Assembly: GCA_025963195.1 (NCBI GenBank)
Contig: JAOPVF010000405.1
Coordinates: 1-44,370 of the forward strand
Length of the DNA: 44,370 nt
Source of the DNA: Mycobacterium sp.
Lineage (GTDB): Bacteria > Actinomycetota > Actinomycetes > Mycobacteriales > Mycobacteriaceae
Direction: 5' to 3'
Positions within the stretch are counted from its first letter, which is position 1. Each line of letters starts with the position of its first letter. Shown here piece after piece: positions 4,035-23,407 of the stretch. The notes under the pieces were generated by a model. The model did no database searches and was not told the DNA's origin. It saw only the letters and a list, made by a program, of their open reading frames with translations. Both the position numbers and the translations under genes were made by a program.

Positions 4035-4883
4035 ATGTTGATCAGACGAATCGCCCGTCCCATGTTGGCCGCGACCTTCGTCGGGCGCGGCGTCGAGGCG
4101 TTGCGCAGCCCCAAACCGGCGGCCGACGCAACGCGTCTCACTCTTGAAGGCCTTGCCAAGCTGCCCGATCCCGTCGGACCGAACGTCCCGACGAACGCCG
4201 AAACCGTGGCGAGGATCAACGGCGCCGTTCAGATCGGCGCCGGACTTCTGCTCGCCACGGGTAGGTTGCCGCGTTTCGCCTCGGCGGCGCTCGCCCTCAG
4301 CGTCGTACCGGGAAGCCTTGGCGGAAACACGTTCTGGGCGGAACACGACCCGGCGCGCAAGGCCGAGCAGCGGCGCGCCTTCGTCGCCGACATCAGCCTG
4401 ATCGGTGGGCTGATCATCGCGTCGGTGGACACCGAGGGCAAGCCGTCACTGGGATGGCGTGGCCGCCGCGCCGCGCGCAAGGTATCGGAGGCCGTGGTGA
4501 CGGCACTACCGGTCGGCGCAGCGTCCAGTACGGCGCTCGCCGACAGCGCCTTGGCCGAGAAGCTCGGTCACGGACTACAGATCGGTGCCGAACGAGGCCG
4601 CGAGTTCGCGCACCTGGCGGTTGAACGCGGCTCGGAGCTCGCTGACGTCGCCCGCGAACGCGGCTCCGAGTTCGCCGACGTGGCCCGCGAGCGGGGGCCG
4701 GAAATCGCGAAGCTTGCACGCGAACGCGGCTCCGAGCTGGCCGAGGTGGCCCGCGAACGCGGCTCCGAGCTGGCCGAGGTGGCCCGAGACCGTGGACCCG
4801 AGCTTGCCAACCTGGCCCGCGAACGCAGCCAGGAATTGGCCGACACGGCCAAGGCGGAGGCCAGGAAGCGCCGCCGGGGCTGA
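4035..4883 (+). CDS. DoxX-family membrane protein with C-terminal 11-residue repeat tail
   Basis: 'MLIRRIARPMLAATFVGRGVEALRSPKPAA...NGAVQIGAGLLLATGRLPRFASAALALSVVPGSLGGNTFW' DoxX-like; then ERGSELAxVAR repeats. Confidence 0.85.
   Translation: MLIRRIARPMLAATFVGRGVEALRSPKPAADATRLTLEGLAKLPDPVGPNVPTNAETVARINGAVQIGAGLLLATGRLPRFASAALALSVVPGSLGGNTFWAEHDPARKAEQRRAFVADISLIGGLIIASVDTEGKPSLGWRGRRAARKVSEAVVTALPVGAASSTALADSALAEKLGHGLQIGAERGREFAHLAVERGSELADVARERGSEFADVARERGPEIAKLARERGSELAEVARERGSELAEVARDRGPELANLARERSQELADTAKAEARKRRRG
4590..4853 (+). repeat. Eight in-frame 33-bp tandem repeats encoding an 11-aa motif (consensus ERGSELAxVAR)
   Basis: Units: ERGREFAHLAV/ERGSELADVAR/ERGSEFADVAR/ERGPEIAKLAR/ERGSELAEVAR/ERGSELAEVAR/DRGPELANLAR/ERSQELADTAK. 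Confidence 0.95.
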
Positions 4884-20400: not shown

Positions 20401-20433
20401 AACGGCCCCGCCGGCGATGCCAGCGGGGCCGTT
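20401..20433 (-). terminator. GC-rich stem-loop downstream of the lipoprotein gene
   Basis: AACGGCCCCGC-cggcgatgcca-GCGGGGCCGTT, perfect 11-bp stem, no strong U tract. Confidence 0.75.
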
Positions 20434-20449
20434 GGATGAGCGGTTCGCG

Positions 20450-21157
20450 TCAGGCGAAGCGCGTGTTGCCCGTGACCAGATCACCGGTGACGTCGGTCCC
20501 GTTGATCTTCGAGGTCAGCTTGTTGTTCGCCAGCTTCACCGTCTGGTCGGCCTGCTGCAGGATCCGCTTGTTGCGGACCGTGGCCTGGAACTGCTGGTTG
20601 TTGAGCTGCTGCAGTTCGGCCTGCTCGAAGTCGCGGCCGGTGATGCCACCGTTGAACTGCACACCGGTCACCGAGCCGTCGGGACGCACGATCCAGGAGG
20701 CGCGCACGCCATTGAGTGCAGCGGTGTACATGCCTGCAGGCGAGGACACCGGAGCGGCGGTGAAGTCGTAGCTGACGCCGTTCATGGTCAGATCGCCCTT
20801 CACGTCCGAGCCGGTGAACTTTGCGTTCAGCGTGTCGCGGAACTTGTTCTTGACGTCGATGGCGCCGTTGGCCTGGTTGCCGAAGAACCACGCCTCGTCG
20901 TCGACGCCGTTGCAGGCGTAGGCGGTGATGTCGTTGCCGTCGACGGAGATTCCGATGGCCATCTTCTTTCCGTCCTTCTCGATGTCGGCCATGTACCTGG
21001 CCGATGTGGGGAAGGGCGCGGCCGTCGCGGGTGCCGCAGAGGACGGCGCCTGCGCGGGCGTCGCTTCCGTGGACGAGCCGCTCGAGCAGGCGGTCAGGGT
21101 ACCCAGCGCGAGCATTGCGCTGACACCGATGAGCAGGGTGCGGAACTGTTTTCTCAT
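20450..21157 (-). CDS. Secreted lipoprotein of unknown function
   Basis: Lipobox 'LGTLTAC'; Ala/Pro/Ser-rich linker then repeated 'G(S/T)DVKGDL/GTDVTGDL' segments. Confidence 0.85.
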   Translation of the reverse strand: MRKQFRTLLIGVSAMLALGTLTACSSGSSTEATPAQAPSSAAPATAAPFPTSARYMADIEKDGKKMAIGISVDGNDITAYACNGVDDEAWFFGNQANGAIDVKNKFRDTLNAKFTGSDVKGDLTMNGVSYDFTAAPVSSPAGMYTAALNGVRASWIVRPDGSVTGVQFNGGITGRDFEQAELQQLNNQQFQATVRNKRILQQADQTVKLANNKLTSKINGTDVTGDLVTGNTRFA

Positions 21158-21187
21158 GTCACCAGCATGCTTCGCGGCCCGCAGCAG

Positions 21188-21220
21188 TGCATGAAGATTG
21201 TATGGAGATTGCATGGAGAT
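21188..21220 (-). promoter_or_regulatory. Three tandem 11-bp direct repeats over the candidate promoter of the lipoprotein gene
   Basis: Minus strand ATCTCCATGCA|ATCTCCATACA|ATCTTCATGCA; contains TACAAT (candidate -10) with TTCATA 17 bp upstream. Confidence 0.75.
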
Positions 21221-21272: not shown

Positions 21273-22544
21273 TCATTCAGCCAAGAACGACTCGACCTCG
21301 GAACAGAACACCGGCCACGCGGGCTCGGTCTCGGTGAGCAGGTGGTTGTTGCTCGAAAGTGCCACCAGTCGCGAATCCGGTATCAGCGCGGCCAACTCCT
21401 CGCCATAGCGCATCGGCACGCGGTGATCATCGCGGGAATGCATGATCAGCGTCGGACACGACACCTGTTCCGCCAGTTCGCGTACGTCGATGCGGGCGAA
21501 TTCCTCGAGGAAGCGCACGGCGTTGTCCGGGGATGTGGTGCGGCGCTGCAGGTGGTCGAACGCCTCCCAGTCCGCACGGGATCCGTCGGGCAGGAACTGC
21601 GCTGCGAACACCTGCCGGAATGCCGGATCATCGCGACCCCAGCCAACCCGCGCGAGGTCGAGATCCAGTGCGGCCGCACGCCTCTCGGCATCGTCGATGG
21701 CACGCACCGCACGTCCCCGTGCGTAGGACGAACACAGGATGAGCTTGGTTACCCGCTCGGGATGCTTGGCCGCGTATGCCACCGCCACCGCGCCGCCCTG
21801 CGACACCCCGAGAAGCGGAAATCGTTCCAGCCCCAGCGCTTCGACGACGGACGCCAGGTCCGACACCCAATCGTCGAACGTGAAATCGGCTGCTTCCCAA
21901 TCCGATAGGCCGCAACCTCGTTCGTCGTACCGGATGAAGGTATGGCGGGCGGCGAGGTCGCGAACCCAGTGCCGCCAGACCGGGCTCTCGATGTCGTAGC
22001 CCAGGTGGGTCATCCAATTCGCGGCCCGCACCAAGGACGGGCCCTCCCCCGCGACCGCATACGCCAACCGCACACCGTCGGCCGCTCGGCAGAACGAGAT
22101 GTGCTGGCGCGGCGGCGGCGCCGATTCCGGTACCGCAGGCTTTGCCTCCGGCGTGTCTGTTGCGATGGTGCCGACGAACTGATAGCCACGGCCGCGCACG
22201 GTCCGGATGTAGCGCTGCGACTCGCCGTCATCGCCGAGCGCGTGCCGAACCGCCTTGATTCGGCTGGTCAGTGCCGCCTCGCCGACGAACCGGCCACCCC
22301 ACACCGTGTCGAACAACTCTTCCTTCGTGACGAACCGGTCGTGATTACTGACCAGATGCGTCATGACGTCGAACACCTGCGGTTCGACCTTGATCACGTC
22401 ACCGTCTCGGCGCAGTTCATAGCGGGCGGTGTCCAACGCGAAGTCATCGAACCGCCACACCCGGCCGGCGGGGGCCGGTTCCGGGGTCGACTCCGTTGAC
22501 GACAGGGTCAATTCGATCCGATCTCGAGGTTGGCGATCTCGCAT
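21273..22544 (-). CDS. OmpR-type winged-helix DNA-binding domain fused to alpha/beta hydrolase
   Basis: 'YELRRDGDVIKVEPQVFDVMTHLVSNHDRFVTKEELFDTVWGGRFVGEAALTSRIKAVRHALGDDGESQRYIRTVRGRGYQFVG' then 'LGVSQGGAVAVAYAAKHPERV'. Confidence 0.92.
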   Translation of the reverse strand: MRDRQPRDRIELTLSSTESTPEPAPAGRVWRFDDFALDTARYELRRDGDVIKVEPQVFDVMTHLVSNHDRFVTKEELFDTVWGGRFVGEAALTSRIKAVRHALGDDGESQRYIRTVRGRGYQFVGTIATDTPEAKPAVPESAPPPRQHISFCRAADGVRLAYAVAGEGPSLVRAANWMTHLGYDIESPVWRHWVRDLAARHTFIRYDERGCGLSDWEAADFTFDDWVSDLASVVEALGLERFPLLGVSQGGAVAVAYAAKHPERVTKLILCSSYARGRAVRAIDDAERRAAALDLDLARVGWGRDDPAFRQVFAAQFLPDGSRADWEAFDHLQRRTTSPDNAVRFLEEFARIDVRELAEQVSCPTLIMHSRDDHRVPMRYGEELAALIPDSRLVALSSNNHLLTETEPAWPVFCSEVESFLAE

Positions 22545-22606: not shown

Positions 22607-22948
22607 TCAGCGCCAGCCGTCGGCCGCCTTGGCCGCGCGCATCAGCGCGTCGCAGAGCTGGCGCAGTTCGAAGCCCTCGGCTCCTTCGTCGATGGCCGTT
22701 GCGAGGTCCTCGGCGGCGCACCTCACCTCGAACACGCGATCGGACAGCTCGGAGGCTTCGTCGGCGGTGAGAACCACCGAGTCGGGCGACAGTGATGTGC
22801 CCTTCACCATGGCGCGTTGCTCGTAGGCGCGTTGCCGACAGGACTGCCGGCAGTACTGCCTGCGCCTGCCCAGCCCGGCGTCTGCGACCTCGCGGCCGCA
22901 CCAGCGGCACGGCTGCGCGCGAATGCGTCGTTTGGTTCCTGTCGCCAC
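22607..22948 (-). CDS. Small conserved protein with N-terminal Cys zinc-finger-like motif (Rv2049c position)
   Basis: 'PCRWCGREVADAGLGRRRQYCRQSCRQRAYEQRA'; adjacent to rbpA. Confidence 0.75.
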   Translation of the reverse strand: MATGTKRRIRAQPCRWCGREVADAGLGRRRQYCRQSCRQRAYEQRAMVKGTSLSPDSVVLTADEASELSDRVFEVRCAAEDLATAIDEGAEGFELRQLCDALMRAAKAADGWR

Positions 22949-23032: not shown

Positions 23033-23071
23033 GATTCCCCGGACGAATCGCATGACGAGGAGATGTTGACG

Positions 23072-23407
23072 ATGGCTGATCGTGTCTTGAGGGGCAGTCG
23101 CCTCGGAGCCGTGAGCTACGAGACCGACCGCAACCACGACTTGGCGCCGCGTCAGGTCGCGCGCTACCGCACCGACAACGGCGAGATCTTCGAGGTGCCG
23201 TTCGCCGACGACGCGGAGATCCCGGGCACCTGGCCGTGCCGCAACGGCATGGAGGGCGCCCTGATCGACGGCGACGTGCCCGAGCCCAAGAAGGCGAAGC
23301 CGCCGCGCACCCACTGGGACATGCTGCTGGAGCGCCGCTCGATAGAGGAGCTCGACGAGCTGCTCAAGGAGCGCCTCGACATCATCAAGACCCGCCGCCG
23401 CGGTTAG
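23072..23407 (+). CDS. rbpA: RNA polymerase-binding protein RbpA
   Basis: 'MADRVLRGSRLGAVSYETDRNHDLAPRQVARYRTDNGEIFEVPFADDAEIPGTW..CRNGMEG...KPPRTHWDMLLERRSIEELDELLKERL'. Confidence 0.98.
   Translation: MADRVLRGSRLGAVSYETDRNHDLAPRQVARYRTDNGEIFEVPFADDAEIPGTWPCRNGMEGALIDGDVPEPKKAKPPRTHWDMLLERRSIEELDELLKERLDIIKTRRRG

What the first reader, a model, noticed from the sequence alone, without database searches (positions are those of the whole stretch)
21188..21220. Three tandem 11-bp direct repeats sitting on the lipoprotein promoter next to an OmpR-type winged-helix/hydrolase gene
Minus strand reads ATCTCCATGCA ATCTCCATACA ATCTTCATGCA, 31-63 bp upstream of the lipoprotein ATG, overlapping a plausible TTCATA-N17-TACAAT promoter. 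Tandem repeats at exactly 11 bp are how OmpR/PhoB/PhoP-type winged helices bind head-to-tail. The gene immediately upstream encodes that fold fused to an alpha/beta hydrolase with no receiver domain, so a hydrolase-linked one-component switch controlling the lipoprotein is a concrete hypothesis.
Basis: partly seen in the sequence, partly recalled or inferred. Interest (0 to 1): 0.75.

Follow-up and report, generated by a model that had tools for sequence, protein, structure and literature searches.

The report
Hydrolase-fused regulator's three-repeat operator
Three 11-letter DNA repeats in front of a mycobacterial lipoprotein gene are one copy of a conserved switch site that occurs almost only in mycobacteria carrying the neighbouring DNA-binding gene, so they are very probably where that unusual hydrolase-fused regulator docks to turn on a small set of cell-surface genes.

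Summary
The repeats are real, exact and far beyond chance (0 of 400 simulated windows). They are not local to this gene. The same 3 x 11-bp array (ATCTCCAC-n3, three times) precedes the lipoprotein orthologue in about 25 relatives and also precedes three other gene families: an MGT-type glycosyltransferase, a small secreted protein and an ECF sigma factor, 2-7 arrays per genome. Across 396 Mycobacterium genomes, arrays and the wHTH domain of the neighbouring wHTH-hydrolase protein co-occur almost perfectly (88 both, 2 wHTH only, 4 array only, 302 neither). Species with only a stand-alone wHTH (72% identical, no hydrolase) keep arrays. A relative lacking the wHTH gene at the same locus kept the lipoprotein but has no array. 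A 55%-identical homologue outside the family has an array beside it. The third repeat sits on the -35 region, at fixed distance from an A-n3-T -10 element and an inferred leaderless ATG, as expected for PhoB-like class II activation. Binding and the role of the hydrolase are untested. Best reading: a one-component, OmpR/PhoB-fold activator with a hydrolase-fold sensor, and its operator.

The parts
21210..21220 (-). repeat 1 (distal) ATCTCCATGCA of the operator array
   Evidence: half-site ATCTCCA nearly invariant in 93 arrays
21199..21209 (-). repeat 2 ATCTCCATACA
21188..21198 (-). repeat 3 (proximal) ATCTTCATGCA, covering the -35 region (-41 to -31 from the inferred start)
   Evidence: fixed spacing to the -10 in 93 arrays
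21164..21169 (-). -10 element CATGCT (A-n3-T), 6 nt before the ATG; transcript inferred leaderless, start at 21157
   Evidence: conserved A at +52 and T at +56 of the array profile; ANNNT is the usual mycobacterial -10 and about 24% of M. smegmatis transcripts are leaderless (PMC6448022)
20450..21157 (-). lipoprotein gene (235 aa, LTAC lipobox-like), target of the array
   Evidence: orthologues with the same array upstream; no Pfam or NCBIfam match
21273..22544 (-). wHTH-alpha/beta-hydrolase fusion gene, proposed regulator (start codon not certain)
22173..22463 (-). OmpR/PhoB-type winged-helix domain (residues 28-124)
   Evidence: PF00486 1.3e-16; model; nearest solved sequences RstA, RegX3, CadC, PhoB
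21276..22106 (-). alpha/beta-hydrolase domain (residues 147-423) with Ser248, Asp373, His401 invariant in 31 homologues
   Evidence: PF00561 2.6e-27; alignment A1; model and fold search
22607..22948 (-). small CRWCGREVADAG protein gene just upstream of the regulator; with RbpA (23063-23407, +) it marks the syntenic locus

Best explanation
The three repeats are the operator of the neighbouring protein. Its OmpR/PhoB-type winged-helix domain (in some relatives a stand-alone protein) binds head-to-tail, one subunit per 11-bp turn, with the third subunit over the -35 region of a promoter that has only an A-n3-T -10 and a leaderless start. From there it recruits RNA polymerase (class II activation, as PhoB does) and turns on the lipoprotein and a few other envelope or secreted products, a glycosyltransferase and an ECF sigma factor. 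The alpha/beta-hydrolase domain, with an intact catalytic triad, replaces a receiver domain and most likely senses, and perhaps hydrolyses, a small ligand. Shown here by comparison: array, regulon, promoter geometry, co-occurrence with the wHTH. Inferred: binding by this protein, activation rather than repression, ligand sensing by the hydrolase.
For: Array conserved upstream of orthologues in the gene pair. In 99 genomes, all 25 with the fusion have arrays, and the only other genomes with good arrays (G035, G082) carry a stand-alone wHTH 72-73% identical. In 396 genomes the table is 88/2/4/302, Fisher p = 2e-80, not corrected for kinship. The wHTH is patchily distributed (11 changes on a 30-genome tree that deliberately includes the exceptions); in independent pairs the array goes the same way 5-6 times and never the opposite way. 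28 of 33 wHTH copies have an array within 1 kb, including second copies in G009, G027 and G053 next to an ECF sigma gene. In G154, G335 and G152 the locus has a stand-alone wHTH and no hydrolase, yet the lipoprotein keeps its array. G028 lacks the wHTH gene at the same RbpA locus, keeps the lipoprotein and has no array. A Micromonosporaceae MAG homologue (55%) has an array right beside it, upstream of a divergent gene. Outside the genus 1 of 178 genomes of the order has a match. Fixed spacing of repeat 3, -10 and ATG in 93 arrays.
Against: No binding or expression data. G371 has two good arrays but no wHTH found in a nominally complete assembly. G145 and G366 have arrays without the wHTH, although a lipoprotein remnant at the locus suggests recent deletion. 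Two more distant homologues (L308, L310) have no array nearby. A second transcription factor with the same distribution was not excluded. The half-site resembles that of a true response regulator (CopR of C. glutamicum).
Confidence: 0.78

Rival explanations
1. The array is the operator of a classical two-component response regulator of the OmpR family (CopR-like), and the wHTH-hydrolase gene is only a neighbour or another target.
For: CopR of C. glutamicum binds TGAAGATTTnnTGAAGATTT, an 11-bp direct repeat whose core ATCTTCA equals repeat 3 (PMC3140484). G371 has arrays without the wHTH.
Against: Arrays follow the wHTH domain in 396 genomes, including genomes where it is stand-alone, sits elsewhere or is duplicated, and beside a distant homologue in another family.
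Confidence: 0.13
2. The wHTH protein binds the array but represses, blocking the -35, and the hydrolase ligand relieves repression.
For: The array overlaps the -35 region, which also suits a repressor.
Against: The promoters lack a recognisable -35, begin the -10 with C instead of T, and keep a fixed repeat-to--10 distance in four unrelated gene families, which is typical of activator-dependent class II promoters. In recent wHTH losses (G145, G366) the lipoprotein is broken rather than freed.
Confidence: 0.15
3. Chance or non-functional tandem repeat, for example replication slippage in an AT-rich spacer.
For: Short tandem repeats can arise by slippage (general knowledge).
Against: Unique in the window and absent from 400 simulations; conserved across species and upstream of four gene families; reversed-pattern control near zero.
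Confidence: 0.01

Closest known systems
PhoB/OmpR-type response regulators (PhoB pho box, RegX3, MtrA)
   Same: Winged-helix fold (Trans_reg_C), direct repeats at 11 bp, proximal repeat over the -35 region.
   Different: No receiver domain; an alpha/beta hydrolase sits C-terminal; three repeats with the core ATCTCCA.
CopR of Corynebacterium glutamicum
   Same: Direct repeat of 11-bp period with core ATCTTCA (TGAAGATTT on the other strand; PMC3140484).
   Different: Phosphorylated two-component regulator with a single site in its genome; here 2-7 sites per genome and no receiver domain in the proposed regulator.
CadC/ToxR-type one-component regulators
   Same: N-terminal OmpR-type winged helix joined to a sensory domain that is not a receiver; CadC is among the nearest solved wHTH sequences.
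   Different: CadC and ToxR are membrane anchored with a periplasmic sensor (general knowledge); this protein shows wHTH, linker and hydrolase only, no membrane segment in the model.
RsbQ and KAI2-type hydrolase-fold signal proteins
   Same: Alpha/beta hydrolase with Ser-Asp-His triad that takes part in signalling; both appear among sequence or fold matches.
   Different: Not fused to a DNA-binding domain; matches to ordinary esterases are equally good or better.

Membership tests
OmpR/PhoB-type winged-helix DNA-binding domain | Trans_reg_C domain above curated cut-off and matching fold | tested here: met
   PF00486 60.9 bits against 26.2 cut-off; strand and helix order of the model
OmpR/PhoB-type winged-helix DNA-binding domain | Binds tandem direct repeats at about 11 bp | tested here: inconclusive
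   3 x 11-bp arrays track the domain across genomes; no binding assay
Two-component response regulator | N-terminal receiver domain | tested here: not met
   Only wHTH and hydrolase domains found
One-component regulator | DNA-binding and sensory domain in one chain | tested here: inconclusive
   wHTH plus hydrolase in one chain; sensing by the hydrolase not shown
Active alpha/beta hydrolase | Intact Ser-Asp-His triad | tested here: met
   S248, D373, H401 invariant in 31 sequences
Active alpha/beta hydrolase | Catalysis on a substrate | not testable with these tools
   needs an assay
CopR regulon | Copper-resistance genes as targets | tested here: not met
   target families are lipoproteins, MGT-type glycosyltransferase, small secreted protein and ECF sigma factor
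CopR regulon | Cognate sensor kinase | not tested
   no kinase search was run; none is adjacent in the window region examined

The most novel reading that the evidence does not exclude
A family of soluble one-component activators in which an alpha/beta hydrolase has taken the place of a receiver domain as ligand sensor, controlling a cell-envelope regulon in about a quarter of Mycobacterium species; in some species the bare wHTH, without the hydrolase, runs the same regulon.
Probability: 0.5. Interest if true: 0.72.

Novelty: new variant of a known kind. Interest (0 to 1): 0.6.

Why it matters
It turns a short repeat into a predicted regulon with a named regulator, a defined operator, promoter geometry and four target gene families, in about 23% of sampled Mycobacterium species (90 of 396). 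If the hydrolase is the sensor, it is a direct handle on a small-molecule signal that controls surface lipoproteins in environmental mycobacteria. No paper describing the regulator or the operator was found in the library searched, which does not cover most subscription journals.

Tried and rejected
Chance repeat: rejected. LpqH/19-kDa family for the lipoprotein, recalled from memory: no Pfam or NCBIfam match. CopR-like response regulator as binder: half-site similar, distribution and targets do not fit. Hydrolase required for the site: rejected by stand-alone wHTH genomes. Repeats near the distant homologues L308 and L310: none found. Literature searches for a wHTH-hydrolase regulator gave nothing relevant. 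A macrolide link (weak EstT-like hydrolase match and MGT-type glycosyltransferase target, both far below curated cut-offs) is noted as a lead only.

Full report
Observation. The minus strand at 21188-21220 reads ATCTCCATGCA ATCTCCATACA ATCTTCATGCA. Pairwise agreement is 9, 10 and 10 of 11; no other place in the window reaches this, and none of 400 first-order Markov windows does. The array lies 31-63 nt upstream of the ATG at 21157. The window belongs to a Mycobacterium assembly of 587 contigs, 73.5% complete (genus from the named relatives).

The neighbour. The gene ending at 21273 encodes an OmpR-type winged helix (PF00486, 1.3e-16) followed by an alpha/beta hydrolase (PF00561, 2.6e-27) and no receiver domain. 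An AlphaFold model (mean pLDDT 84) shows the wHTH at residues 28-124, a low-confidence linker and the hydrolase at 147-423. Ser248, Asp373 and His401 are invariant in 31 homologues, including two at 48-56% identity. The nearest solved wHTH sequences are RstA, RegX3, CadC and PhoB; the hydrolase is nearest to esterases, with RsbQ and KAI2 among the matches.

Conservation of the array. Searching 99 Mycobacterium genomes with the lipoprotein and reading upstream of the orthologues shows the same 3 x 11 array, consensus ATCTCCACnnAATCTCCACnnnWTCTYCATG, next to the wHTH-hydrolase gene. The array pattern (up to 2 mismatches) is found in 29 of 99 genomes, 2-7 per genome in most, with the reversed control near zero. 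In the window's own genome there are five: this one, one before a paralogue of the lipoprotein, one before a small secreted protein, one before a glycosyltransferase, and one unassigned.

Who reads it. The fusion protein is present in 25 of the 99 genomes and all 25 have arrays. Of the four other genomes with arrays, two have one poor match each (chance), and two (G035, G082) have a stand-alone wHTH 72-73% identical to the domain here and no fusion. In 396 genomes the wHTH (E <= 1e-22) is in 90, arrays (<= 1 mismatch) in 92, both in 88; Fisher p = 2e-80, which ignores kinship. On a tree of the lnt gene from 30 genomes, chosen to include the main exceptions, the wHTH needs 11 changes, and in independent pairs the array goes the same way 5-6 times, never the opposite way, and does not differ in 3-4 (sign test p 0.03-0.06 in this exception-enriched sample).

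Exceptions. G303 is 58% complete. In G145 and G366 the RbpA locus holds only a 3' remnant of the lipoprotein beside the small gene, so the regulator was probably deleted recently. G371 remains unexplained. In the opposite direction, G028 keeps the lipoprotein at the same locus without the regulator and has no array.

Locus-level evidence. 28 of 33 wHTH copies in the 99-genome set have an array within 1 kb; these include second copies of the fusion in G009, G027 and G053, where the array precedes an ECF sigma gene. In G154, G335 and G152 the locus carries a stand-alone wHTH and no hydrolase, followed (read in full for G154) by a sigma/anti-sigma pair, and the lipoprotein further on keeps its array. 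In G256 the stand-alone wHTH lies on the other side of the lipoprotein and the array (2 mismatches) is still there. A Micromonosporaceae MAG with a 55% homologue (its frame is broken in that assembly) has an array directly beside the gene, upstream of a divergent transporter-like gene. Outside the genus one of 178 genomes of the order has a match, in a simple repeat.

Promoter geometry. Aligning 93 arrays shows three half-sites of 7-8 bases at period 11 and, 21 nt after the array, an A-n3-T element. This is the usual mycobacterial -10, and about a quarter of M. smegmatis transcripts are leaderless (PMC6448022). In the window the -10 is CATGCT (21169-21164), 6 nt before the ATG, so the transcript is inferred to be leaderless with its start at 21157; the third repeat then spans -41 to -31.

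Targets. Of 157 arrays collected, 77 lead to the lipoprotein or its paralogue, 27 to a glycosyltransferase of the macrolide-type (MGT) superfamily, 21 to a small secreted protein and 8 to an ECF sigma factor. The collection over-represents the lipoprotein because many loci were fetched through it or its neighbour. The lipoprotein, its paralogue and the small secreted protein match no curated family.

Mechanism. Best reading: the wHTH binds head-to-tail, one per repeat, with the proximal subunit over the -35 region, and activates; the hydrolase serves as sensor. Array, regulon, geometry and co-occurrence are shown; binding, activation and sensing are inferred. The half-site core resembles that of CopR from C. 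glutamicum (PMC3140484), a reminder that the binder is assigned by comparison only.

Novelty. The parts are known; the combination (OmpR-type wHTH, hydrolase in place of a receiver, defined operator and regulon) was not found described in the library searched. It is filed as a new variant of a known kind, not as a two-component regulator.

Noticed in passing
window 4623-4826: 33-bp and 99-bp tandem repeat array (TRF scores 210-268) in what looks like coding sequence.
   Followed up: no
window 20401-20435: GC-rich inverted repeat just after the lipoprotein stop, possible terminator.
   Followed up: no
L135, L136, L335, L337, L338, L340, L342-L347: Stand-alone wHTH subfamily (about 160-203 aa) with a conserved C-terminal tail (RYRVAPSTRRRxFxGPPR or similar), in some genomes followed by an ECF sigma and anti-sigma pair.
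   Followed up: partly
L307 (M. ahvazicum): Fusion gene matches only over residues 1-307; two weak arrays 6-7 kb away.
   Followed up: partly
L248, L249: Apparent deletion scars at the RbpA locus that leave a 3' remnant of the lipoprotein gene and remove the regulator.
   Followed up: partly
L349, L350 (G371): Good arrays before a glycosyltransferase and a small secreted protein in a genome with no detected wHTH.
   Followed up: partly
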